A stretch of 50,160 nucleotides of DNA, taken from a virus. The translations under genes were made by a program, and so were the position numbers. This document shows positions 4,525 to 36,565 of the stretch, piece after piece. Numbering within the stretch: position 1 is the first letter of the stretch; the number at the start of each line of letters is the position of its first letter. Under the pieces are notes generated by a model. It did no database searches. It was not told where the DNA came from and saw nothing but the letters and a program-made list of their open reading frames with translations. Where the stretch lies: positions 1-50,160 of the IMG/VR virus record IMGVR_UViG_3300030099_003747; one strand, 5' to 3'.

Positions 4525-6615
4525 CTAGTTACCAATCATGTTTTTAAATCTTTTTGCGGCTGTATCATCGCCTTTATCTGCAATGGCTCGATTTCTAGGG
4601 TCTGGTATTGGCCGTCCTTGCGCATCGTATGTTCCTGGTGGAGAACCTTCAGGAGGTAAACTCATAGAAGGCTTAGGCCCTGGTGTAGTTCTTTGTTGAA
4701 CCACTGTTCGTGCAGGTGGTTGTTGGGCGCTCATAGCGGCAGCATCAGCGGCTTCCCTTTCTCTTCGCGCTTCCTCAAGGTTCCTTTGGTACAAATCTGG
4801 GTCGCCACCAAACCCAATGCCCCTACCGGTAAATCTTTGCGCAGCCGTTGGTGCGGCAACAGGCTCTGGTTCTTCTTCGACGGCAAGCTTTGGTGGGAGT
4901 GGCTCAAACCCAGGAAGAGCGTAGATGCCCTCTTTTTCTTTTTCACCGGGCTTCAGTCGTTCTTCACCAGTAATGCGCTCAAGGTACCTTTCAGCAGCGG
5001 AGATAACCTTTTGCCTGCGCTCCTTTGGAACACTTGCAGCAAAGGTGTCGAATGCTGTTCTTTCCTTCGGAGTAAGGTCTTCGTCAGACTCAACTGCGAT
5101 GCTTTCAATGGCCTCACGATCAGCATCATCAAGAGTTTGCTCAAACTCTCGAACACCAATAGCTCGAAGAGACTCTATTGCATTTTCAAGCTGATCTACG
5201 GTGTTGTTTCCACTGAAGTACCTTGCGGCAGGTGGGCGGTTAATCGCCACACCAAACAGACGCTCTAGTGGTCGTGTAAGGTTTGTTGTTCTAAGAAGAG
5301 AATCTTTTTCTGATGAACCAGCCACTCGAAGACGCTCTTGAATGGCTTGTGGTCTGTCTAGTTGATCGTCTTGACCTGAGTCGTAAAGGCTCTTTACTAG
5401 CTTTACATACTCCATCCGCTCACTTGGATGGTCCATCATGTACCTGACGGCCTTATATGGGCTCTTAAAGCCCATTGCTGCCATGTAGGTATCGAATCGG
5501 GGGATTGCTGCTGCGTATCTTGCAACGGCTTGTGACAAGGGGTCTGTCGGATTGTCTAGCTGCTCAAGCTGGTTTTCAAGACGTTGCTTTGTCATCTGCA
5601 CCGACAACGGTGCTGGCATCTCTTGAAGAGACTTAGCGAACTCTTCTGGACCCTTTGCTGAAAGCTCAGCAGACATGCTTGCGAGTCTAGTGAAGTTTTG
5701 TGCAATCTCTTTTGGTATGCCTACAGACATACCTAGAATCGTTTTTTCCAGTGCTCTTTTTCTGTCTGAGCCTTGTATCCGAATGCGCTCAGCAGCATCT
5801 AGTTCCGCAGAAGTGGTTTCAAAATCTCGATACTCTCTGTCCCTGATTCCATTTAAGGCTGATTGTCCTACAATCCCGGTCTTTAGTGATGGGTCAGAAA
5901 GTCGAGCGCGAAGCTTTTGATCCCAATTACCTGTAGGGTCAAGGCCCCTAATAGCGATATCATATGCATTAGACAGGGCGTCTAGTTGAGCGCCGCGAGC
6001 AAGCTTTTTGGTGTCAACTAGGGTCACAACATCTGCGCCCATTGACTGAAGCTCTCTTAGTTTTGGTCCAACTACATTTGAGTACCCATCCTGCGAGACT
6101 TTAGCCATCTGCTGCTGAATAGCCGCAGCAACTTGGTCAGGAGGAGTTCCTCGTTCCCTTAGCTCATTAATCGTATTGGTTATTGCAGTTACGGCCTGTT
6201 CTTCAAGAGAGAATCCTTGCTGCTTAATGAATGCAGACGACTTGGCTTCATACCTTGGAGAAAACTCATCTATGATGCCTTGCTTTACTCCATTGATTGC
6301 CAGCAATGCTTGACTGACCATTTGATTATTCATCTGCCCAGTACGAGCAAGATTCGCTACTGCTGATACAGCTTGAGCGGCGGCTTGCTGTGCAGACGTA
6401 ATAATATTTGCGTAGCTAGTTACTGACTGAATCGCGAGTTCCTGCTCAAGCTTTGCGATTGCTGCCAGTTGTCTAAGGTACGCTTCCTTGAGCATCTGCT
6501 CAGCTTCTGGAGAAAGACCGGTGCCTTCTGGTGTTCTAAATCCAGCAATGCCAGCACCTAGAATGTTTGCGCCAGTGTATGGCTCACGCCCCTGTGATGG
6601 TCGAATCTCAGCCAT
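4525..6615 (-). CDS. Internal virion / ejection-type protein, 696 aa
   Basis: It encodes a 696-aa, mostly helical protein rich in Ala, Gln and Glu. The N-terminal quarter (about 40-110) has long Ala/Gln amphipathic helices; the C-terminal 150 residues are Pro/Gly-rich and probably disordered, ending in a basic tail. The start ATG overlaps the stop of the upstream 201-aa gene (TAATG at 6615), and the giant virion gene follows 19 bases after its stop. Small, medium and giant Ala/Lys-rich proteins in a row are what podoviruses such as T7 show for their internal core or ejectosome genes. I see no enzymatic motif. The function is inferred from order, size and composition, not from recognised homology. 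Confidence 0.72.
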   Translation of the reverse strand: MAEIRPSQGREPYTGANILGAGIAGFRTPEGTGLSPEAEQMLKEAYLRQLAAIAKLEQELAIQSVTSYANIITSAQQAAAQAVSAVANLARTGQMNNQMVSQALLAINGVKQGIIDEFSPRYEAKSSAFIKQQGFSLEEQAVTAITNTINELRERGTPPDQVAAAIQQQMAKVSQDGYSNVVGPKLRELQSMGADVVTLVDTKKLARGAQLDALSNAYDIAIRGLDPTGNWDQKLRARLSDPSLKTGIVGQSALNGIRDREYRDFETTSAELDAAERIRIQGSDRKRALEKTILGMSVGIPKEIAQNFTRLASMSAELSAKGPEEFAKSLQEMPAPLSVQMTKQRLENQLEQLDNPTDPLSQAVARYAAAIPRFDTYMAAMGFKSPYKAVRYMMDHPSERMEYVKLVKSLYDSGQDDQLDRPQAIQERLRVAGSSEKDSLLRTTNLTRPLERLFGVAINRPPAARYFSGNNTVDQLENAIESLRAIGVREFEQTLDDADREAIESIAVESDEDLTPKERTAFDTFAASVPKERRQKVISAAERYLERITGEERLKPGEKEKEGIYALPGFEPLPPKLAVEEEPEPVAAPTAAQRFTGRGIGFGGDPDLYQRNLEEARREREAADAAAMSAQQPPARTVVQQRTTPGPKPSMSLPPEGSPPGTYDAQGRPIPDPRNRAIADKGDDTAAKRFKNMIGN

Positions 6616-7228: not shown

Positions 7229-8062
7229 CTAAAAAAGTTCAAAGTGTACAAGGTCGTCTGTTTTGACACCATACCACTCGTCGATTCCAAAGTTTTTTTC
7301 TGCTCCAGACTTTATGGCAACAATGTTTAGTCCACCACAAAGAGCAGCAATCTTTCTAGAAAAGTCTGGTTTTGCGCCATGATCTTGAAGCAGAAGATAG
7401 ATCATTACTTCAAAGTTGTGGTAACCACGGCCAACATGTACGACCTTTGTCTTAGAGTGCCACCTGTTTGCGGTTTCTGATGGTTGTGCGTCATCTCTTG
7501 AGGGTGGACATTTTGTTTCTGTCCCCTCTTGGTAAACGCCATCAACGTACAATCGATGATGAGACATGTCGCCAATAAGCTCCCAGTCTTCGCCAAGAGT
7601 GTTTATGTTGTCCTCTTGAAACAAAGTCGGGTCAAAAAATGCGTGGTAATTGATGTATACAACCGCGTCCCAGGGGATAAATAGGTTCGCGCACATTCCA
7701 TACGACTGCGTAAACAGCTTATCTTTTGGCCTGTTTATTAGTCCTCTATTTTGAGGGCTGTATAGGACATCAAAAGAATCTGTATCAACAGTAAACTGTG
7801 CTTCGTTGTAACGCTCTGGAAACGTAAATCCATAGTGGTACCCTCTAGCAAATGTGCCACTGCGAAAATGCTCTGACTTTACTGAGCCAGCTATTGATGA
7901 TGTATTTTCTCCAGTCAGGCCACCATTCAAAGCTTCAAATGTGTGCTCTGTAGCCCCAGTGTCATCAATAAACTTGGTCGGACTATACAGACAAAAATCA
8001 TAGATCTCATCTACGTCTACATCGCTGCTAGAAGGCGTAAATGTTCTTTGAAACCGAGCCAT
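7229..8062 (-). CDS. Unknown virion-region protein, 277 aa, aromatic-rich
   Basis: It encodes 277 aa rich in Tyr, Phe, His and Asp with little predicted helix, so a beta-rich fold is likely. It has no signal peptide or membrane segment. It is the last of three similar-sized beta-type genes lying between the nozzle-like gene and the internal proteins, with gaps of 2-5 bases, so it is co-transcribed with the tail genes. The position suits a tail or head appendage, tail needle or stopper, but no motif identifies it. The start ATG at 8062 gives MARFQR and lies 4 bases after the preceding stop. Confidence 0.72.
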   Translation of the reverse strand: MARFQRTFTPSSSDVDVDEIYDFCLYSPTKFIDDTGATEHTFEALNGGLTGENTSSIAGSVKSEHFRSGTFARGYHYGFTFPERYNEAQFTVDTDSFDVLYSPQNRGLINRPKDKLFTQSYGMCANLFIPWDAVVYINYHAFFDPTLFQEDNINTLGEDWELIGDMSHHRLYVDGVYQEGTETKCPPSRDDAQPSETANRWHSKTKVVHVGRGYHNFEVMIYLLLQDHGAKPDFSRKIAALCGGLNIVAIKSGAEKNFGIDEWYGVKTDDLVHFELF

Positions 8063-27638: not shown

Positions 27639-27983
27639 CTATTGCTTAGGTATCTCACCCTCTTGCATTAGGCGGACAGCCTCTTTCAATACGCATACGC
27701 GGTACGATAGCGTGTCAGGTCCGCGCCTGCCTGGACCCCGCTTGTAATCGCCCCAACACATATTGCCGAGCCGGTCCCATGCTTCGACACTTAGGCCGCT
27801 CTGATACCTGCCATGGAGTGTATCGTTCAATGCGAAGTCAATATGTTTCCATCCCCGAATGGTATCGATGACCCTCTCATAATCAGGGTCATTGCAAAGC
27901 ATGTCTTTGAACTTCTTACGATGTTCATTGAGTGAATGCTCGTCGAGCTTCTTTCGCCATGGCATTTGGTATGTCTCAGACAT
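27639..27983 (-). CDS. Unknown 114-aa protein
   Basis: It encodes 114 aa from ATG 27983, preceded by AAAGGAA 6 bases upstream; a longer hydrophobic extension has no site. The sequence is charged and aromatic with Trp residues at WRKK, GWKH, WDRL and CWGD, and a basic Gly/Arg turn (RGPGRRGP). Its start overlaps the stop of the 72-aa gene. It is the last gene before the bidirectional terminator. No family recognised. Confidence 0.7.
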   Translation of the reverse strand: MSETYQMPWRKKLDEHSLNEHRKKFKDMLCNDPDYERVIDTIRGWKHIDFALNDTLHGRYQSGLSVEAWDRLGNMCWGDYKRGPGRRGPDTLSYRVCVLKEAVRLMQEGEIPKQ

Positions 27984-28194
27984 TGCTATTCCTTTCGTAT
28001 ACAGGGACACAGGCACCGGACGGCAATACGTGGTCAACACGGCCATTGAAAGCGTAGCCGCGAGACACGTCCCAATCAACAGACTCAACCGCGTCAATCA
28101 ATCCAGAGCGTCCATAGTTAGACCACGAAACATATTCTGGAGGACCGCCAGTGTTTACTTTTAATGTGACAATATATTGTACAACTGTTTTCAT
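27976..28194 (-). CDS. Unknown 72-aa protein
   Basis: It encodes 72 aa from ATG 28194. The N-terminus MKTVVQYIVTLKVN is a beta strand-like sequence, followed by Pro/Gly and Trp residues. It overlaps the next gene by 8 bases. No strong Shine-Dalgarno is visible, so the exact start is uncertain. The function is unknown. Confidence 0.6.
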   Translation of the reverse strand: MKTVVQYIVTLKVNTGGPPEYVSWSNYGRSGLIDAVESVDWDVSRGYAFNGRVDHVLPSGACVPVYERNSNV

Positions 28195-28232
28195 TTTATA
28201 AACTAACTTTGTAGTTTGATTATGAAGAGACA

Positions 28233-28252
28233 CCGGCCCCCGAAGGGGCCGG
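28233..28252 (-). terminator. GC-rich UUCG-loop hairpin after the DUF932-like gene
   Basis: On the minus strand CCGGCCCC-TTCG-GGGGCCGG makes a perfect 8-bp stem with a very stable UUCG tetraloop, 11 bases after the stop at 28264. Only a weak T-rich tract follows (TGTCTCTT), so it may act as a partial terminator or 3' stabiliser. Confidence 0.7.
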
Positions 28253-28263
28253 CATTTGTATGA

Positions 28264-30078
28264 TTATGCTTGTGCAACAAGAGCAGGAACAAGCAAGCCA
28301 GCTTCGCGCTCCAATACATCACGAGCACAATCATCAACGAGGTGCTGATGGGCCATGCGTGTGATTGCATTGATTACATCCTGGACACTATCGCCACCGC
28401 CCTGGTCTGCATATGAATCGAACATCATTTGCACAGCAGCATCACGACCAATGCCGGATGCAACCTTGCCTTCGGCAACGAGCTTCTTGATAAGGACTTG
28501 CGATGCATTGTCACTACCAGTTGCGTAGTCATCGGTGTCCTTCGCACTGATTACATCCATTGATGCAGTCTGTCCGAGGATGCCCCAGTCCTGAGCGAAT
28601 CGCTCCATTGCAGGGCGTGCATCTTGCATACCCTTGCGGATGGCCTCCATCTTCTGTTGCATATTGCCCTTGTGGATTGCACGCATGATCTCATTCTTCT
28701 TGGAATGCAGAATGATCATGTTGAGACACTCGTTCCAGAATGCAATGGCGCTACCGTTGATTGAGCCGCCCCCACGGTCGTTCGCCTTGAACCGGAACCC
28801 AACCTCATACAAGTCACCTGCACTGAAGTCCGTCAGGTCTGCCGGAGCATGCATTGTCAGGTCCATTGTGAAGTTTGTAGTCTCCGAGTTGTATTGAATC
28901 TCTGCCTTGTATGGCATGTCATCAACAGCAAGCTGAATCATGTTTGCAACCTTGTCTGCATCGTACTCTTGGTAGCCAGTACCAACGACGCCGAAGATGC
29001 TACGAGCACCGTCGTTCAATCGAGTGCGGAACTTCATGACCTTGTCGTGACTACAATGACGTCGCATGTGCTCATTGAAAACATATGCTCGGACATCTGG
29101 GTCAAGTGACTTCATTGTATGAAAGCCGCGAGGAAACAATGCATCAGCGGAAGACATGTCCTCACCAACACCAAAGCGTGATGCTGCAAGCAGTTGCTTT
29201 AGACCATGCTCCTCCAATCGGAAGCTACCCTGGCTGGTCAACAGCATTCCATCGTCACGCATTTGCAATCCAGACAGCGGAAGGTCAACGCTCATCCGGT
29301 CTTCGCTTTCAATAATGCTCATGAACTGCCTTGCAGCAGTGTATGCATCAGGCTTCTCATCCCAAACAGCACGAGCAGCAGAAAGGTTATCGTAACCAAG
29401 GTCAACCACAGTAGTGCCGCGCTTGTACCCAGCTTTTGTGATTGAGATGTTCTTGGTAGGACGTGACAGACCAAGGTCTGCAAGCCATGCATCATGCTTT
29501 TGCTGACGCTCGACTGCAACCTCACTGACCTCGATTGCATTAACAGTACGCTTATCGCCATGATTGCTTACGCCGTTAGCACCAGAGCCCCAACCGCCTT
29601 GGAATACTGGAGTATCCTCACGAACTTGAGGGTCTTCAGACATTGCAATCTCAAGACGTGACGTGGTTGCATTAGCAATGTCGATGCTGTTCATGTCTTC
29701 AGATAATGAATCCATTGCATCATTTGTCTGCTCATACTGTGACTCCATGTCATCAACGACTTGCTCTGTAACGGGAGGGTCGTCATTGCATACAGCATCC
29801 ATGAAGTCATCGACTGAACTGGTATCAAGCAATGCATCGATGTCATCCATAGACATTGTGCTTACGTCATCTTGCTTTGGCTCATCCTTTGGAATGTGGA
29901 TGGTCTCACTCTTAGCGACCGCCTCTGTAATACATCCATCTGTGCGCAAGCCTTGCCAAAGGCCAGCCCTGTAATCAGTGAAGAATGCAAGCTGCGCTTG
30001 GTCCCTGGCGTCTTCCTTTGTAACGCCGTTGAAGGTTTGTTGAGTGCCGTCGGGTTGTGTGTAGATGAATGAATGCAT
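28264..30078 (-). CDS. DUF932-like protein, 604 aa
   Basis: It encodes 604 aa from ATG 30078 (AGGAAA upstream). The N-terminal 200 residues are acidic and low in structure; the rest resembles the DUF932/phage-plasmid-type family, with a segment RSIFGVVGTGYQEYDADKV (about 390-410) like that family's ... G-x-Y-x-x-x-x core, and later the motif DRGGGSINGSAIAFWNECLN. DUF932 proteins are widespread in phages and plasmids and have no settled function. It lies downstream of a leader hairpin shared with the gene at 33152. It is the largest non-structural gene. Confidence 0.72.
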   Translation of the reverse strand: MHSFIYTQPDGTQQTFNGVTKEDARDQAQLAFFTDYRAGLWQGLRTDGCITEAVAKSETIHIPKDEPKQDDVSTMSMDDIDALLDTSSVDDFMDAVCNDDPPVTEQVVDDMESQYEQTNDAMDSLSEDMNSIDIANATTSRLEIAMSEDPQVREDTPVFQGGWGSGANGVSNHGDKRTVNAIEVSEVAVERQQKHDAWLADLGLSRPTKNISITKAGYKRGTTVVDLGYDNLSAARAVWDEKPDAYTAARQFMSIIESEDRMSVDLPLSGLQMRDDGMLLTSQGSFRLEEHGLKQLLAASRFGVGEDMSSADALFPRGFHTMKSLDPDVRAYVFNEHMRRHCSHDKVMKFRTRLNDGARSIFGVVGTGYQEYDADKVANMIQLAVDDMPYKAEIQYNSETTNFTMDLTMHAPADLTDFSAGDLYEVGFRFKANDRGGGSINGSAIAFWNECLNMIILHSKKNEIMRAIHKGNMQQKMEAIRKGMQDARPAMERFAQDWGILGQTASMDVISAKDTDDYATGSDNASQVLIKKLVAEGKVASGIGRDAAVQMMFDSYADQGGGDSVQDVINAITRMAHQHLVDDCARDVLEREAGLLVPALVAQA

Positions 30079-30134
30079 CGTACTTTCCTGTTGAATGCCG
30101 AGCTTTGAAGACCGGCTGTTGGGTTGAGGAGGGT

Positions 30135-30179
30135 GGGATGTTCCACCTCCCTTCACTTCGTTCAGGGAGTGGAACACCC
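30135..30179 (-). ncRNA. Leader hairpin 1 (conserved 13-nt loop)
   Basis: Arms GGG, GTTCCAC and TCCC (30135-30151) pair with GGGA, GTGGAAC and CCC (30165-30179), with single-base bulges. The loop on the plus strand is TTCACTTCGTTCA. It lies 19 bases after the upstream stop and 56 bases before ATG 30078. The copy at 33201-33246 has the same loop and layout but different paired arms. It may be a cis-acting RNA or an intercistronic element; no T tract follows. Confidence 0.65.
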
Positions 30180-30198
30180 CATCTCCCCTGGTTTCGGA

Positions 30199-30555
30199 CT
30201 ACTCCTCATACGTGTTCACGTATTTAGCTGTGATTGTATTCTTCATTTGCCATAGAGGTAGCTCGACAAACGAGCCGTCTGGTCTCACTCTCCTGCCCGT
30301 GTCTTCAAAGAATCCACAATCATCAAGAGCCTGCAATAGACCGGGCGACATGTTGTACCAGTTCACAAAGAACTGATCACCATCAATATCAAGTGACGGA
30401 ATGTTCTTGGACACAACTGAGTACGGGAAGCCATCCTCGCCGTGAAGCATTACAGCAAGGCGATTGTTATCCACATATGTTCCGACAGATATAATCAAGT
30501 TCAAGTCATTGAACTGCATGTGACCAATAGGACGTGGTGAGAATCTACTTTCCAT
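30199..30555 (-). CDS. DUF4313-like protein
   Basis: It encodes 118 aa. The pattern ISVGTYVDNNRLAVMLHGED, then FPYSVVSKNIP, FFVNWYNMSPGLLQALDDCG and DTGRRVRPDGSFVELPLW matches the small DUF4313-type proteins of phages and plasmids, which have no known function. It overlaps the previous gene by 11 bases and is the last gene of the coupled run before the leader hairpin. Confidence 0.78.
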   Translation of the reverse strand: MESRFSPRPIGHMQFNDLNLIISVGTYVDNNRLAVMLHGEDGFPYSVVSKNIPSLDIDGDQFFVNWYNMSPGLLQALDDCGFFEDTGRRVRPDGSFVELPLWQMKNTITAKYVNTYEE

Positions 30556-30745
30556 CGATAAGCTCCATTGCTTTTTCTATTCTTGTAAGGGCACCATCGA
30601 TGTTGCTCCTCACTTGATACTTACGCCAGTCATCCCATCGTTCAGAGCCACATGTTTTACATGCTTTCTTTGTCACTCTGATTGAGTACTTGATGTCTGA
30701 CAACACTGCTCTTGCCATTTCAAGGTCTTCCATTGTGCTTGGCAT
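30545..30745 (-). CDS. Unknown 66-aa protein
   Basis: It encodes 66 aa from ATG 30745, which shares a base with the previous stop (TGATG) and has GGAGGTGAG as ribosome site. It is helical and charged, with a CKTCGSERWDDW segment whose two Cys could bind metal only with a partner. The function is unknown. Confidence 0.75.
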   Translation of the reverse strand: MPSTMEDLEMARAVLSDIKYSIRVTKKACKTCGSERWDDWRKYQVRSNIDGALTRIEKAMELIDGK

Positions 30746-31728
30746 CACTCACCTCCCGTCATGTCGTCTTGCCAAAACTTCAGCAGGCTTACTAAAGCAG
30801 CTTCGCGCGTTGCTTTGTCTGCCCTTGGGTAGTGCATTTCGATTACATCGAGATGCTTGTTGGCGTACTTACGATCTTCAATCTCTCTTTCCTTACGCCA
30901 CCGTTCGATTCGCTCTTCACTCTCACGCTTCAGTTGCTCTTCACGCTCAATCTCTTCTTGTGTTGGTGGCTTCGGCCCGACTGGTTTGCGCTTGGTTCGC
31001 TTGCGTTTGAAGCGTGCTTCTGCAATCCTTCGACAGTGAGGGCACACTTTGTAAGTGCCAACCTCTTCAGGCTGTCCCTGATAGGCGGCATCAATAATCA
31101 TATTCAGATCATTCTCGAAGCCCCCTGACCCATTGCCACAAAGCGATGACCAAAGCTCACATCCACCACTTGTTAGGTGTATGGTTTTTACTTTTGTATT
31201 GGAGCGATGTTCTCCAACCCCGATACCTCCGCCCTCTTCAATGTACTGCTCTAAAACTGGGCATGAAATATGAACTTCTTTCAAGGGATCTCTGCATCCC
31301 AACCAAATATCATCGCCATCTTCATTCTTTCCCCAACAGTACCTAAAATGTATAGATCTATATTGACCCTTTTCTGCTGGCGGATGCTCTTTCTCAAGTC
31401 GGGCACGACAATCCTCAAAATCAGATTCTGTCCAACTCATTCGGCTTTGTCTGTATAGTGCGCTTTCTATGCATTCTTGTCGGAACTTTTGTTGTTTGAC
31501 CAAATCCTCTTCACCATCAGACTCAAGCGAAAACCGTACAGTAGTAGCCATCTTGCCATTTACAGGTATAGGGCAAGGGTTTAGCGACATAAGAGCATCA
31601 ACGTCTTCTTGTTTATCTATGTCCTCTGCCCACAATGGGTTGTGTTTGTCCGGGTCAAATCTCGACGGTACGTGTTTCTCAATGCCAAATGCATCAAGCA
31701 CTTCACTTGCATTCGATTCGTAGGTCAT
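30745..31728 (-). CDS. Unknown 327-aa protein with a zinc-binding-type Cys pair
   Basis: It encodes 327 aa. Residues 1-110 are charged; 110-220 contain a Cys/Gly-rich domain (HFRYCWGKNEDGDDIWLGC, later GGCELWSSLCGNGSGGFEND). A CPHC motif near 235 is followed by a long Arg/Glu/Lys helix (240-290). Cys-x-x-Cys and other Cys/His residues suggest zinc binding. It lies in the run of coupled genes with the shared junction. No family recognised. Confidence 0.75.
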   Translation of the reverse strand: MTYESNASEVLDAFGIEKHVPSRFDPDKHNPLWAEDIDKQEDVDALMSLNPCPIPVNGKMATTVRFSLESDGEEDLVKQQKFRQECIESALYRQSRMSWTESDFEDCRARLEKEHPPAEKGQYRSIHFRYCWGKNEDGDDIWLGCRDPLKEVHISCPVLEQYIEEGGGIGVGEHRSNTKVKTIHLTSGGCELWSSLCGNGSGGFENDLNMIIDAAYQGQPEEVGTYKVCPHCRRIAEARFKRKRTKRKPVGPKPPTQEEIEREEQLKRESEERIERWRKEREIEDRKYANKHLDVIEMHYPRADKATREAALVSLLKFWQDDMTGGE

Positions 31729-31943
31729 CACTCACCTTCCCTTTCAAGCCATTCATTGAGGCCAACAGTACAAGCCTCCTCGTGTTCTTTGACTGTGAGT
31801 TCAACAGGACTGTCATTGAATGTGTCGATAGCCCACTCAATATCTACAAAGCCGGCGTCCTTGTCGTAGTACCCACACACATTGATTTCCATCTGCTCAT
31901 CGGTTGAATCAATGTCCCTATAGATTGTGTAATAGAAGGTCAT
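31728..31943 (-). CDS. Unknown 71-aa acidic protein
   Basis: It encodes 71 aa, acidic and aromatic: MTFYYTIYRDIDSTDEQM, then NVCGYYDKDAGFVDIEW. It looks like a single small alpha/beta domain. Start ATG 31943 and stop both lie in the shared GGAGGTGAGTGATG junctions, so translation is coupled on both sides. The function is unknown. Confidence 0.75.
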   Translation of the reverse strand: MTFYYTIYRDIDSTDEQMEINVCGYYDKDAGFVDIEWAIDTFNDSPVELTVKEHEEACTVGLNEWLEREGE

Positions 31944-32236
31944 CACTCACCTCCTTGGGCTTTGGCGATTGCTTTACGGGCACACAGTGCTGCCCACATT
32001 TCGCCGGGTTGCGAACGCTGCTCCAAATATGGGAGCAATGTTTCCAGCGCATCCAATAGGTCGGGTGCCGCCGCAATCAGTCGAGCGTTGGCCTTCACCT
32101 CCTCGACAGCCATGTCCCAATCTTCTTCTGCTCTGGATACTACGACGGAATATCCTCGACTCGGCATGTCAACGTGCCAGATGTCCGAGGGGTAGCCTTC
32201 CGACGCTTCCCAAGGTCCAACTGTATGCTTACTCAT
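31943..32236 (-). CDS. Small phage protein of the HTVGPWE/ANARLIAAAPDLL type
   Basis: It encodes 97 aa. It begins MSKHTVGPWEASEG and continues with KANARLIAAAPDLLDALETL, ending in a short Ala-rich helix. This is a common small phage and prophage protein type, often between replication and accessory genes, with unknown function. The start is at 32236, overlapping the upstream stop. Confidence 0.85.
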   Translation of the reverse strand: MSKHTVGPWEASEGYPSDIWHVDMPSRGYSVVVSRAEEDWDMAVEEVKANARLIAAAPDLLDALETLLPYLEQRSQPGEMWAALCARKAIAKAQGGE

Positions 32237-32742
32237 ACCTCACCTCCTTGCTTCCAGTCCCACCATTGCGGTGGGTCTGAGTGTTTCCACGTTGCAAAGT
32301 CACACTTCTCCATGTTGTAGAAGTATCGGTATGACTCAACTACGTTGTCTGTCTTGTACTCGTCTGGCATACAGAGAGGATGCGGAGTCTTTCTAAGGCC
32401 AGTAATGAGACTCGTTGCGTCTAATACTTTCAGGCACTCATTGATAATCGACCTGCACTTGTGGTCTTTCTTCTCTGCATTCTTCTTTTGGAATCGCAGC
32501 AAGTACTCATCGCACAGTGCAATCCCGTGGTCATACAACCAAAGCCAGTTGCCAAGCGTCTCCCCCGTCCAGATAGTACAGGGGTGATGCTTGTGGGTTG
32601 ACTTGTATGGGCCAACGCCACCATTGTTATTGATAGCGGTCGATAGCATTTGTGCTGACTCAAGAGCCATCTTTACGACATGCTGATCACAAAGCATTTG
32701 TGCTGCTTTTCGTGGGTGTTCATCAACGACAAAGATGTTCAT
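32233..32742 (-). CDS. Conserved phage protein, MNIFVVDEHPRKAA type
   Basis: It encodes 169 aa. The sequence MNIFVVDEHPRKAAQMLCDQ, then HVVKMALESAQML, followed by a middle GNWLWLYDHGIALCDEYLLR and a C-terminal MPDEYKTDNVVESYRYFY and WKHSDPPQWW, is a pattern I recall from many phage genomes without assigned function. Many conserved-looking His, Trp, Cys and Asp residues suggest an enzyme or metal site. It is in the coupled gene run. Confidence 0.8.
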   Translation of the reverse strand: MNIFVVDEHPRKAAQMLCDQHVVKMALESAQMLSTAINNNGGVGPYKSTHKHHPCTIWTGETLGNWLWLYDHGIALCDEYLLRFQKKNAEKKDHKCRSIINECLKVLDATSLITGLRKTPHPLCMPDEYKTDNVVESYRYFYNMEKCDFATWKHSDPPQWWDWKQGGEV

Positions 32743-33152
32743 CACTCACCTCCCTTTGCAGCATCTTCCTTTGCATATTGAAGGCACCTTTCTGCACGGT
32801 CAGAGATGTGCTCAATGAGACGCTTCTTGTATTGAGCATCAGTGAGGCGGGTTGCATTTGTCCACAAACCAATGTGTGCTTTCACCTCTTCGAGTGTGAT
32901 CCTTCTTGCAACCAGATGCCCCTTCTTTGGGTCAAACATTTGAGCAACAGGCTCACTGGCAAAGCGAGCCATCTCATACCGCACGTATACTTTCTCGTAG
33001 TTCTTTGCGGTGATGTCACTGATACCAATGAACCATGTTCCATTGACAAGTGCTTCAGTAGCCTCTTGCAAACGTCTCTGACCATGCTCATCCTTCTCGG
33101 TCCAGCATGCTGTTTTGTAGTTTTTTACTTTCTCAATGTTCCATCGAAACAT
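32742..33152 (-). CDS. Unknown 136-aa protein, first gene of the coupled run
   Basis: It encodes 136 aa: N-terminus MFRWNIEKVKNYKTACW, a middle beta/alpha region with WFIGISDITAKNYEKVYVR, and a C-terminal helix ending in AKEDAAKGGE. It starts 48 bases after a leader hairpin that matches the one before the DUF932-like gene, and ends in the shared junction sequence. Its ribosome site is AAGGG. No family recognised. Confidence 0.75.
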   Translation of the reverse strand: MFRWNIEKVKNYKTACWTEKDEHGQRRLQEATEALVNGTWFIGISDITAKNYEKVYVRYEMARFASEPVAQMFDPKKGHLVARRITLEEVKAHIGLWTNATRLTDAQYKKRLIEHISDRAERCLQYAKEDAAKGGE

Positions 33153-33200
33153 TTTGTTTTCCCTTGCCGGACTTTGCCGACGGTTTGGTTTTGACGAAGT

Positions 33201-33246
33201 GGGTCTCTCTATCCCCCTTCACTTCGTTCAGGGGGTAGAGAGCCCC
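33201..33246 (-). ncRNA. Leader hairpin 2 (conserved 13-nt loop)
   Basis: Arms CTCTCTA and CCCCC (33205-33217, one bulged T) pair with GGGGG and TAGAGAG (33231-33242), with an outer GGG/CCC. The loop is TTCACTTCGTTCA, identical to the copy at 30152-30164, while the stems differ in sequence but still pair. It lies 11 bases after the upstream stop and 48 bases before ATG 33152. The downstream leaders also share CAAAGYYCGGCA. Confidence 0.65.
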
Positions 33247-33257
33247 AAGTCTACGGC

Positions 33258-33914
33258 TCAGCCAGCCTGCCTTTTCCAGCCCGCGTAATCCCACCTGCGT
33301 GTAGGGACCGGCTTGATTCCAAGCTTGATACGCCTACGCCTTACAAACTCAGTAGGAACATTGATATCCATAGCAATAGAGTGGTCGCTATCTACGCCCA
33401 GGCGATCAATCACTGATGCTATTGCAGATATTCTGCGTTTGTGTTCTTGACTTTTGTGAGCTGGAATATTGTATTTCTTGCGAAGCTTAGAGATTGCAGA
33501 TGCAGATATGCCAACTGTTCTTGAAAGCTCAGCATCAGATATCTTGCCTAAGTTGTTCAGTATAAACTTAGAGTCATCATCATCCAGTCGATACAATATC
33601 CCAGAGTTTGGCTTTTCTATTTCAAGCGCTGCTCTGTATTGGCGAACACGCTCTCTGGATATTGAGTACTTGTCTGCAATCAAAGAGTCGCTTTTGTTTC
33701 CAAGCATTTCGTACATGCCTGGATACTTTTTACGAAGCGTTCTTCTGCAATGATCTTTGTTATTGCTTGGGCTGCATCGAGGAATACGCAAACGCCTTCT
33801 GATTCTTTGAATGGTGACTGCGCTTACTCCTGCAATAGACGCAAGCTCAGAGTCGTATATCTGCCCAAGCAATGCATAGTGTTCATCTGATAGAACGATT
33901 TTCTTCCTGCCCAT
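33258..33914 (-). CDS. DNA-binding protein with four helix-turn-helix repeats
   Basis: It encodes 218 aa from ATG 33914, with GAGGG upstream and a 7-base gap to the previous stop; TTG 33938 is a poorer alternative. Four units of about 31 residues at 15-45, 70-100, 121-151 and 171-201 follow the pattern Gly-x-x-(S/D)-D-x-x-hydrophobic-A ... (I/V)-x-R-x-R-x-x-L-x-I, for example SDAELSRTVGISASAISKLR. These look like tandem HTH units, spaced about 50 residues. It is basic and lies just downstream of the regulator genes. It may bind repeated sites. Function is inferred. Confidence 0.82.
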   Translation of the reverse strand: MGRKKIVLSDEHYALLGQIYDSELASIAGVSAVTIQRIRRRLRIPRCSPSNNKDHCRRTLRKKYPGMYEMLGNKSDSLIADKYSISRERVRQYRAALEIEKPNSGILYRLDDDDSKFILNNLGKISDAELSRTVGISASAISKLRKKYNIPAHKSQEHKRRISAIASVIDRLGVDSDHSIAMDINVPTEFVRRRRIKLGIKPVPTRRWDYAGWKRQAG

Positions 33915-33921
33915 AGTACCC

Positions 33922-34842
33922 TCACTCTTCATATGCAAGGTCTACTGTACTGTAAGGATCGCTATTTGTCAACCGATTAAGTGTAATACCTCCTGCGGTT
34001 TCAAACTGTATTCCAGTTTCAAAGGAGTCATTTAGCGTTCTTATGTACTGTGATCGGAACAGCCTTTCGATGTCTCCCACCAACTCCCACCGACATGTAT
34101 AGCCCTGGTTCCACCACTGGGGGCAGAGCCTGGACAACAGAGACACCGACTGCTGATAGATAGCCAGTGCTGCCTCTCTTGAAACAATCGGAACACGCAT
34201 TTCAATCATTGCAGCAAGCTCTATTAGTTGAGCAGCTTTGTTTGCTTGTAATGAAAGAACAAGTGCAGTCACTGTAGCGTGACGTATTGTTATTATCCTT
34301 GGGTACAAAAGATCTTTTGTGTCCCAGTTAGAAGAGACACCTCTTGCAAAAGTCTCTGCGGACACCTCATAGCCAAGGCTTGCCGCGTCCAGTATGCGTT
34401 CTTTTACGAGGGCAAGAACTATCTTTCTATACCTTGTGTTGGATTTCTCTATGACATCCAGTTCATTCTTTGGCGACAACCTATCTATGATTGTGCGAGA
34501 TATTGCATTCGCCCACGGGGTCAGGTCTTCTTCTGATAGCCCAAGGTTTGAAGGTACATTGTGTTCAAGCTTTGCACCATCGTACCTCCACAATCGCCCG
34601 TCTCTTCCAAGGAAGATGTCGCGCCTGCCGATACAAACACCAATATAGTAGTTGCTGATACCTACCTGTACGATTCCTACGTTAAGTATTCTCCATCGCA
34701 CACGCTTCCTTTCACGCTGGTAGTACCAACCAAGCGGAATGCCAAGCTTTCTAAGGTCTGTCCTTCCTGCAATAAGTGCCTTTGTAGGAGACACCTCACC
34801 GTTTTTTTTGTTTGACAACTCCTGCCGCCTCCAGGGTTTCAA
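33922..34842 (-). CDS. Unknown 306-aa protein next to the regulator
   Basis: It encodes up to 306 aa. The first possible start, TTG 34842, overlaps the regulator gene by 47 bases; TTG 34818 has GGAGG upstream, and GTG 34794 begins right after the regulator's stop, so the start is uncertain. An N-terminal beta region (IVQVGISNYYIGVCIGRRDIF) is followed by helical sequence with many Arg and Trp. Ala-rich helices lie at about 190-240. The function is unknown. Being coupled to a repressor gene, it may belong to the same regulatory unit. Confidence 0.68.
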   Translation of the reverse strand: MKPWRRQELSNKKNGEVSPTKALIAGRTDLRKLGIPLGWYYQRERKRVRWRILNVGIVQVGISNYYIGVCIGRRDIFLGRDGRLWRYDGAKLEHNVPSNLGLSEEDLTPWANAISRTIIDRLSPKNELDVIEKSNTRYRKIVLALVKERILDAASLGYEVSAETFARGVSSNWDTKDLLYPRIITIRHATVTALVLSLQANKAAQLIELAAMIEMRVPIVSREAALAIYQQSVSLLSRLCPQWWNQGYTCRWELVGDIERLFRSQYIRTLNDSFETGIQFETAGGITLNRLTNSDPYSTVDLAYEE

Positions 34843-35059
34843 TACAATCCCTTAATGAAAACCCAAGAACACAAATGATTTTGATAAGTACATTTAGTGA
34901 TGGTGTTCTTGATCCAGACTCGTAGTAGCACACAGCCGCTGGTGTCACGCCCAGGTGGCTCGCAAGCGTCCGCTGAGACATGCCTGCGTCACGCCTGCGT
35001 TCCCGGATTTTTCGAGAAACCACAAGGCTAAAGCCTTGTGAGACCTGGTCTTTCGACAT
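34796..35059 (-). CDS. Cro/C1-type helix-turn-helix repressor
   Basis: It encodes 87 aa from ATG 35059, with AGGAGG 8 bases upstream; a GTG at 35080 is less likely. The core SRKIRERRRDAGMSQRTLAS, then HLGVTPAAVCYYESGSRTPS is a classic XRE/Cro helix-turn-helix (helices 2 and 3 around residues 28-52). The C-terminal helix ends in a basic tail. It is divergent from the helicase operon across a 100-base intergenic region with tandem CGAAN repeats, so it probably controls that promoter. It is small and lacks a C-terminal dimerisation domain. Confidence 0.88.
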   Translation of the reverse strand: MSKDQVSQGFSLVVSRKIRERRRDAGMSQRTLASHLGVTPAAVCYYESGSRTPSLNVLIKIICVLGFSLRDCIETLEAAGVVKQKKR

Positions 35060-35116
35060 CTTGCTTGCCCTCCTGTTCACCGCGAGTTAACCTGCCCTGG
35101 CCGACAGAGCAAGCGG

Positions 35117-35137
35117 CGAATCGAAACGAACCGAAAC
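35117..35137. promoter_or_regulatory. Tandem CGAAN pentamers, candidate operator
   Basis: CGAAT-CGAAA-CGAAC-CGAAA-C is four direct tandem 5-base units. It lies between the divergent repressor (35059) and helicase (35159) genes, where an operator or iteron would be expected. The next bases to the helicase ATG contain no clear promoter boxes. Confidence 0.55.
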
Positions 35138-35158
35138 TAAGCAGTTGAATAAGGGCTG

Positions 35159-36565
35159 ATGATGAATGACAACTTAAAACCAATGCAAACCGAAAGGCAG
35201 TTACTTGGTACTCTTTTAGTATCTAATGGTTCTAAATTAGTACTAGTTGATGACATACTTAATACTGAGTGTTTCTCTAGTGAGTACCATAAGAATATAT
35301 TTAAATGGGTACAATCTAGAGTAGCTGAAAATAAGTCAGCAGATATGGTATCACTCATTGAAAGTGTAGGTAGTAATACCATTAAACAGTATGGTGGTGC
35401 TGCTTATGTATGTGGTTTGGGTGATGACACAGTAGCTGTTGATGGCATTCTTCGTAAGTATGCTGAACGCATTGAGTCTCACTCAAGACTTCGTCGATTG
35501 CAGCTTGCTGCCAAGATTATCATTGGCAATCTAGAAGAGCTTAGTATGGAGCCGTCGGACATCATAAGTTCCGCCGAGTCTTCTGTATTGGATATCAGTT
35601 CCGACTCTGGCAAAACAAAAGGCATCCTTTCAATGCAAGAGGCTGCGGCAGAGCGCAAAGCATCTTGGCGTAGGATTATGTCTGGTGAAGAGGTCGAGTA
35701 TGTTCCAACAGGGTTTGGTACATTCGACGAACATTATGTTGGGTGGCCGCGTGGTTACATGACAATCATCGGTGGTCGCCCAGAGATTGGTAAGACAATG
35801 TTCTTGGTGTCTGCTGTTCTGCGTGCAGCAATGTCTGGCATTCCACAAGGTGTTCTCTCTATTGAAATGCCAAGGTGGAAGCTTGTAGACAGGATGGCAT
35901 CTATCGTTGCTGGTGTGTCAATCTCAGCTTTGCATGAAAAGAGTGAGGCAGAGGCAGAGCTTGTATTAGATGCAGCCGAGCAACTTGCAAAGGAGCCTAT
36001 CTATATTGACGACAACTCGAATACTGCTGACTCTGTCGAGTCATCTATTCGCAGGATGGTTCGTCAACATGGGTGCAAAGTAATTTGGGTTGACTACTTG
36101 CAGTTGATAAGACCCCCGTCACATCTACCATCAAATCGTAATCGGTCTTGGGAGGTGGACGAGATTAGCGAGACGCTTCGTCGTTGTGCAAAGCAAGAGA
36201 ACGTAGCGATTGTATCTATGATGCAACTGAACCGGGGCACTGAGGAAGTGTATACAGAGGGTCGCAAAGGTGTCCCCAGTTCCCACCACTTCCGTGGTTC
36301 AGACAAGCCATTGCATGACGCTGCTCTTGCTTTTGGCGTATACAGGCAGTTTCAATACAAGAAGCCGAAGAAGCCGATGGGGGATGAGTACACAAACGAG
36401 GAGCTTGCAGCCAGAATGCAACCCTTTGAACTCATCTCACTGAAGAGCCGAGACCACTCAAAGAAGGACGTGGTCCTCTATTCACAGTTGAACGTGCAGC
36501 GTGTGTTCGATGCCTTCGACGACGGCTTTCAGAAGCCAGACTGGACACCACATTTTAGTGCTTGA
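35159..36565 (+). CDS. dnaB: Replicative DNA helicase, DnaB type
   Basis: It encodes 468 aa. Residues 1-110 correspond to the DnaB N-terminal helical domain (starting QTERQLLGTLLV). The RecA-like motor has Walker A GGRPEIGKT (205-213), Walker B VIWVDYLQL (308-316) and the sensor-like VSMMQLNRG (about 344-352), with a C-terminal helix-rich tail. It would unwind the replication fork as a hexamer, recruiting host or phage factors; no phage polymerase or primase is visible. It is the first gene of the early plus-strand operon. The first 260 bases are AT-rich compared with the rest. Confidence 0.95.
   Translation: MMNDNLKPMQTERQLLGTLLVSNGSKLVLVDDILNTECFSSEYHKNIFKWVQSRVAENKSADMVSLIESVGSNTIKQYGGAAYVCGLGDDTVAVDGILRKYAERIESHSRLRRLQLAAKIIIGNLEELSMEPSDIISSAESSVLDISSDSGKTKGILSMQEAAAERKASWRRIMSGEEVEYVPTGFGTFDEHYVGWPRGYMTIIGGRPEIGKTMFLVSAVLRAAMSGIPQGVLSIEMPRWKLVDRMASIVAGVSISALHEKSEAEAELVLDAAEQLAKEPIYIDDNSNTADSVESSIRRMVRQHGCKVIWVDYLQLIRPPSHLPSNRNRSWEVDEISETLRRCAKQENVAIVSMMQLNRGTEEVYTEGRKGVPSSHHFRGSDKPLHDAALAFGVYRQFQYKKPKKPMGDEYTNEELAARMQPFELISLKSRDHSKKDVVLYSQLNVQRVFDAFDDGFQKPDWTPHFSA

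What the first reader, a model, noticed from the sequence alone, without database searches (positions are those of the whole stretch)
30079..30179. Leader hairpin before the DUF932-like gene, matched by another at 33201
The element at 30135-30179 and the one at 33201-33246 have the same 13-base loop (TTCACTTCGTTCA), the same layout (outer GGG/CCC, a 7-bp variable arm, one bulge, a C/G-rich inner arm) and the same place, about 50 bases before a start codon. Their 7-bp arms differ completely (GTTCCAC versus CTCTCTA) yet still pair, which is covariation evidence for structure. There is no T tract, so they are not ordinary terminators.
Basis: partly seen in the sequence, partly recalled or inferred. 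Interest (0 to 1): 0.66.

Follow-up and report, generated by a model that had tools for sequence, protein, structure and literature searches.

The report
Capped hairpins between phage operon genes
Two small RNA hairpins sit between genes of an uncultured phage and belong to a large, unnamed class of very similar hairpins that many phages place between genes of one transcript, probably to separate or stabilise stretches of messenger RNA.

Summary
In mRNA sense each is a 16-20 bp hairpin tipped by UGAACGAAGUGAA. This is not an open 13-base loop: it folds as a U-A pair, a tandem G·A/A·G mismatch, two pairs and a purine-N-A triloop. Orthologous junctions in related phages keep the hairpin with different arms; 10 of 20 pairs show compensatory changes. 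A wider search gave 62 distinct capped hairpins against 0-3 in shuffles. Of the 56 in contigs with usable gene calls, 41 lie between two co-directional genes on the mRNA strand and none lies between two opposite-strand genes. Of those 41, 33 start within 25 nt of the upstream stop codon. The next 20 nt are A+C-rich and T-poor (11% T, control 25%), so they are not ordinary intrinsic terminators. No Rfam family matches at its cut-off. One leader stays nearly identical although the gene behind it differs, which argues against gene-specific regulation. Best reading: intercistronic mRNA punctuation, working like T4 CUUCGG hairpins or T7 processing hairpins but with a different cap. New variant of a known kind; the mechanism is inferred. 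"DUF932-like" is not supported.

The parts
30131..30184 (-). Hairpin H1 (mRNA sense), 18-20 bp; variable 7-bp arm 30140-30146/30169-30175; bulged purine (G in RNA) at 30147; inner arm 30148-30151/30165-30168
30152..30164 (-). H1 cap UGAACGAAGUGAA: U-A pair, tandem G.A/A.G, A-U and C-G pairs, GAA triloop
33200..33247 (-). Hairpin H2 (mRNA sense), 16-17 bp; variable 7-bp arm 33205-33211/33236-33242; bulged purine (A in RNA) at 33212; inner arm 33213-33217/33231-33235
33218..33230 (-). H2 cap UGAACGAAGUGAA, identical to the H1 cap
30097..30116 (-). Possible second small hairpin between H1 and the start codon (GCCG...CGGC); counterparts YCGG-CRAAGU-CCGR in relatives
   Evidence: read by eye; for relatives; this copy itself does not match the consensus
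33166..33181 (-). Second small hairpin between H2 and the start codon, GUCGG-CAAAGU-CCGGC; in G001 ACCGG-CAUCGA-CCGGA
   Evidence: the full-leader fold also offers a competing pairing for this copy
30199..30555 (-). Gene upstream of H1 (118 aa, unknown); stop codon 17 nt before the hairpin
28264..30078 (-). Gene downstream of H1 (604 aa, PHROG 1362, unknown function), conserved in relatives
33258..33938 (-). Gene upstream of H2 (226 aa, weak HTH-domain matches below cut-off)
32742..33152 (-). Gene downstream of H2 (136 aa); no homologue found in the relatives, which have the next gene here instead
32233..32745 (-). Pyrimidine dimer DNA glycosylase family gene (PF03013); its homologue directly follows the same H2 leader in phage G001

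Best explanation
H1 and H2 are intercistronic mRNA hairpins. Shown: they form on the coding strand, just after a stop codon and about 50 nt before the next start codon; the arms are kept by compensatory change while an unusual tip (tandem G.A mismatch plus purine-N-A triloop) is kept; the same arrangement recurs in many unrelated uncultured phages, up to about ten times in one genome, followed by a T-poor, A/C-rich stretch and a ribosome-binding site. Inferred: the hairpin punctuates a polycistronic transcript. Its stable capped stem shields the 3' end of the upstream message or marks a processing point, and it keeps the A/C-rich leader of the next gene single-stranded for independent translation. 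It works like T4 CUUCGG hairpins or T7 processing hairpins.
For: Compensatory changes in 10 of 20 pairs across orthologous and paralogous copies. Among exact 17-mer tips in viral contigs, 34 of 110 have 8 or more further arm pairs, against a mean of 1.4 (maximum 5) when 3' flanks are permuted. 62 capped hairpins in 1.96 Mb against 0-3 in local shuffles; of 56 in contigs with usable gene calls, 41 lie between co-directional genes on the mRNA strand, with a median of 11 nt after the stop and 33 nt before the next start. The following 20 nt are 72% A+C and 11% T, against 52% and 25% in hairpin-free leaders. In the window the seven genes 33152 to 30199 all overlap, mostly by 4 nt, and the hairpins sit at the two non-overlapping junctions that bound them. 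The H2 leader is nearly identical in G001 although the flanking upstream protein is 35% identical and the next gene differs. Phage G014 has about ten copies between successive small genes, one with UACG closed by C-G in place of the triloop.
Against: No transcript, probing or expression data. The loop is more conserved than stability alone would need, which could mean recognition by a protein. Many stems are shorter than two helical turns, awkward for classical RNase III cutting. Some hairpins lie 90-500 nt from a called stop codon. Relatives G003 and G006 lack this hairpin before the orthologous gene, so it is not essential there.
Confidence: 0.55

Rival explanations
1. Binding site for a phage- or host-encoded RNA-binding protein or nuclease that recognises the conserved tip and coordinately controls operon segments (translational operator, antitermination site or specific cleavage site).
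For: The tip is the most conserved part while arms vary freely. Both copies in G001-right carry GUA and both window copies GAA, although the arms are the same pairwise. Several copies often occur per genome.
Against: The triloop differs between copies inside single genomes: GUA, AGA and GAA in G027; GAA and GUA in L097; AAA and AUA in L190. The two pairs below it also change, and tetraloops replace the triloop. No common gene was sought beyond a single-subunit RNA polymerase.
Confidence: 0.22
2. Intrinsic transcription terminators or attenuators that work without a U tract.
For: Strong stem directly after stop codons.
Against: The 20 nt after the hairpin are depleted in T (11% against 25% in control leaders). 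The terminator scan of 27900-35300 does not list them. A gene in the same direction starts 10-60 nt further on in most cases.
Confidence: 0.1
3. A dispersed REP-like or other mobile DNA repeat that has settled in phage genomes; bacterial interspersed repeats such as TCATCCTGAACGTAGTGAAGGATC carry the same tip.
For: The bacterial repeat with the same tip is widespread. In G014 and G031 the copies within one genome share arm sequences.
Against: In most phages arms differ between copies yet pair. Bacterial copies have one fixed short arm and no excess of longer pairing (1 of 141 with 8 or more extra pairs). Phage copies keep a fixed position and strand relative to genes.
Confidence: 0.08

Closest known systems
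T4-type CUUCGG intergenic hairpins (Tuerk et al. 1988, as cited in PMC8948821)
   Same: Very stable hairpins with variable stems and a conserved tip, mostly intergenic, in many phages; a 5' hairpin stabilises T4 gene 32 mRNA (PMC8948821).
   Different: The tip is a C(UUCG)G tetraloop, without a tandem G.A mismatch; stems quoted are 2-8 bp against 11-24 bp here.
T7 intercistronic RNase III processing hairpins (from general knowledge)
   Same: Hairpins between genes of polycistronic phage transcripts, leaving a hairpin at a message end.
   Different: No conserved tandem-G.A/triloop tip; cleavage is proven there and untested here; many stems here are shorter.
T4 gene 43 translational operator (PMC3014915)
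   Same: A hairpin about 40 nt upstream of a phage start codon with a conserved loop and less conserved stem.
   Different: Single gene-specific site that includes the ribosome-binding site; here the element recurs before unrelated genes and persists when the gene behind it differs.
Bacterial interspersed palindromes of the type GTCATCCTGARCGNAGYGAAGGATC
   Same: Same tip: U-A, tandem G.A, two pairs, GNA triloop.
   Different: Fixed short arm (about 4-5 bp), no covarying long arms, no tie to stop codons tested.

Membership tests
T4-type CUUCGG intergenic hairpins | C(UUCG)G tetraloop at the tip | tested here: not met
   Both window tips are UGAACGAAGUGAA. One G014 copy has UACG closed by C-G.
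T4-type CUUCGG intergenic hairpins | Predominantly intergenic position in phage genomes | tested here: met
   41 of 56 callable hairpins lie between co-directional genes; few lie inside genes.
T4-type CUUCGG intergenic hairpins | Stabilises mRNA or stops reverse transcriptase | not testable with these tools
   Needs RNA from infected cells.
Phage RNase III processing hairpins | Intercistronic duplex of about 20 bp or more | tested here: inconclusive
   Stems 11-24 bp; H1 18-20 bp, H2 16-17 bp.
Phage RNase III processing hairpins | Cleaved by RNase III | not testable with these tools
   Needs enzyme or infected-cell RNA; nothing here bears on it.
Intrinsic terminators | U tract directly after the stem | tested here: not met
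   T is 11% of the 20 nt downstream; not listed by the terminator scan.
Any Rfam 15 family | Score above gathering threshold | tested here: not met
   Only a tRNA in the whole window. Near H1 only weak, mostly microRNA-like stem matches far below threshold.
REP-like bacterial palindromes | Fixed arm sequence repeated across a genome | tested here: not met
   The two window arms are unrelated; 34 of 110 viral but 1 of 141 bacterial copies have long covarying arms.

The most novel reading that the evidence does not exclude
The tip is a recognition module for a dedicated trans-acting factor, such as a host nuclease, ribosomal protein or phage protein, exploited by many unrelated phages to cut or protect operon transcripts segment by segment: a general, so far undescribed phage mRNA-punctuation system.
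Probability: 0.17. Interest if true: 0.75.

Novelty: new variant of a known kind. Interest (0 to 1): 0.5.

Why it matters
If right, it names a common structural RNA of uncultured phages that is absent from Rfam, recognisable by a simple rule (stem, Y-GA-R, two pairs, purine-N-A, two pairs, Y-GA-R, stem). It gives a sequence handle on how such phages divide long transcripts into separately translated or separately decaying units. It would also help annotation, because the hairpins mark real gene boundaries and coding strand among small unknown genes.

Tried and rejected
Rfam at gathering and at E-value threshold: no credible family. Terminator reading: rejected on T depletion. Phage single-subunit RNA polymerase link: none found, but the control was silent too, so uninformative. 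Strictly concerted loop change within genomes: suggested by G001 against the window, then contradicted by mixed triloops in G027, L097, L117 and L190. Near matches in cultured phages: gene A has none; the H1 region gives only partial marginal matches; one good single hairpin in Microcystis phage Mvi-JY20; the Vibrio phage hit lies between two convergent genes or operon ends and looks like a terminator, and the Clostridioides hit is unrelated. First gene-calling attempts (greedy longest ORF) mis-assigned strands and were replaced by a codon-trained caller on whole contigs.

Full report
Observation. TTCACTTCGTTCA occurs exactly twice in 50,160 bases, and each copy is the tip of a hairpin that folds about five standard deviations better than its shuffles. 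All genes around are on the minus strand, so the transcribed form is the reverse complement...CCC-UGAACGAAGUGAA-GGG.... In that sense the tip is not an open loop. It is a U-A pair, a tandem G·A/A·G mismatch (5'-UGAA-3' facing 5'-UGAA-3'), an A-U and a C-G pair, and a GAA triloop. That tandem G·A between pyrimidine and purine neighbours, and C(GNA)G triloops, are unusually stable arrangements is established knowledge, not tested here. On the other strand the same place would hold U·C mismatches.

Local anatomy. H1 begins 17 nt after the stop codon at 30199 and ends 55 nt before ATG 30078. H2 begins 12 nt after the stop codon at 33258 and ends 48 nt before ATG 33152. The seven genes between the two hairpins all overlap their neighbours, five times by 4 nt and once by 11; the two genes above H2 overlap by 17 nt. 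The hairpins occupy the two non-overlapping junctions that bound this coupled block. Between the H2 hairpin and the start codon lies a second, small hairpin of the form YCGG-CRAAGU-CCGR. It recurs upstream of the gene-A orthologues in G002, G003, G004 and G005 and changes on both stem sides between the window and G001.

Orthologues. Gene A (28264-30078) has relatives in nine IMG/VR loci. Five loci in four contigs carry the hairpin at the same junction: G001 twice, G002, G005 and G004. G003 and G006 do not. Across these and the H2 copies, 10 of 20 pairs show changes on both sides that keep pairing; the arms GTTCCAC, GTGCTAC, GTTTCCC and CTCTCTA are unrelated or diverged in sequence but stay paired, and the bulged base on the 3' side is always a purine. 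Because these contigs were fetched by protein homology, the test does not depend on the motif. At H2 the leader is nearly identical between the window and G001-right, yet the upstream protein is only 35% identical. The gene directly behind it is a 136-aa protein without relatives in the window, but the pyrimidine-dimer-glycosylase homologue in G001. The leader is therefore not tied to one downstream gene.

Wider family. Exact-tip scans of viral contigs brought in many unrelated phages. Among distinct 17-mer tips, 34 of 110 continue into 8 or more additional arm pairs; permuted 3' flanks give 1.4 on average and 5 at most. For 141 bacterial copies of the tip only 1 does. A covariance model built only from the gene-A/H2 set scores many of these phage hairpins, with E-values down to 3e-13; most of those contigs were chosen by the tip, so these values are not independent for the loop. 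Scanning all held viral sequence for the generalised cap (pyrimidine-GA, two pairs, 3-4 nt, two pairs, GA-purine, stem of 12 bp or more) gave 62 distinct hairpins against 0-3 in shuffles; in the homology-fetched genomes alone 7 against a mean of 0.35. With a codon-trained gene caller, 41 of 56 callable hairpins lie between two genes of the same direction, on the mRNA strand; none lies between two genes of the opposite strand. Of the 41, 33 start within 25 nt of the stop codon. The 20 nt after the hairpin are 44% A, 28% C and only 11% T; hairpin-free leaders of the same contigs have 25% T.

Variation of the tip. Triloops seen are GAA, GUA, AAA, AUA, AGA and GGA, with UCU in G011. The pairs beneath change from AC/GU to GU/AC and AU/AU. 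In G014 tetraloops occur, including UACG closed by C-G. Triloops differ between copies within one genome, so a strictly shared loop sequence is not required. This pattern fits selection for a stable, structured cap more easily than recognition of one exact sequence, though recognition of shape remains possible.

Where in the genome. The best-covered phages carry copies in regions of small unknown genes or replication and recombination genes: G014, about ten copies at 20.2-25.8 kb between successive small genes; G027, copies before or near a RecE-like exonuclease; G023, before a primase/helicase. In the window too, the hairpins lie between unknown genes near a DnaB helicase, an Erf-like protein and a Cas4-type exonuclease.

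Mechanism. Shown: conserved, covarying, sense-strand intercistronic hairpins with a special cap, placed right after stop codons and before unstructured-looking A/C-rich leaders. Inferred: they punctuate polycistronic mRNA, protecting the upstream message's 3' end or marking a processing point, and insulating the next gene's initiation region. This is what T4 CUUCGG hairpins are thought to do (PMC8948821 cites Tuerk 1988 for their abundance in phage intergenic regions and gene-32 work for mRNA stabilisation). Membership in the CUUCGG group is not claimed, because the defining tip is absent. Terminator function is disfavoured by T depletion and by the nearby downstream genes. A dedicated binding protein is the main live rival.

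Limits. No transcript data. Most wider-family contigs were selected by the tip, and some are fragments. The gene caller is home-made. The papers held are only a part of the literature, so 'undescribed' means not in Rfam 15 and not found in the held papers.

Noticed in passing
L203 (G022 20-22.7 kb), L202 (G022 18-20 kb); L206/L209 (G029): Two related 64-kb viral contigs hold a cluster of about 25 perfect short hairpins within about 4.7 kb, many with TTC or C(GAA)G triloops; smaller clusters in L112 (11.4-11.8 kb) and L096 (3.1-3.5 kb).
   Followed up: no
L215-L331, also L002, L003, L008, L012, L015: A short palindrome GTCATCCTGAACGTAGTGAAGGATC (GAGCGAAGCGA in other copies) with the same tandem-G.A/GNA tip is scattered across many bacterial phyla; a literature search for the GAGCGAAGCGA core gave nothing relevant.
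   Followed up: partly
L062:6700-8493 and L064:16880-18688 (G001): One 59-kb contig carries two relatives of gene A (77% and 71% identical to the window's) with different hairpin arms and triloops, perhaps two phages joined or a duplication.
   Followed up: no
window 32742-33152: A 136-aa gene without relatives among the phages compared sits between the H2 leader and the pyrimidine dimer glycosylase gene, apparently gained or lost behind an unchanged leader.
   Followed up: yes
L080 (G012) 6002-6051 and 7472-7520: Two further hairpins share the tip GAAACUUUAGUGA with different arms, and each is followed within about 10 nt by the same stretch CCGTCCAACATTGGACACTT.
   Followed up: no
L335:44108-44160 (PP438412.1): A cultured Microcystis phage, Mvi-JY20, has one such hairpin with two successive tandem-G.A steps between genes of the same direction.
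   Followed up: partly
L097 whole: This 9.75-kb viral contig reads as an inverted duplicate: its hairpins appear mirrored on both strands, probably an assembly artefact.
   Followed up: no
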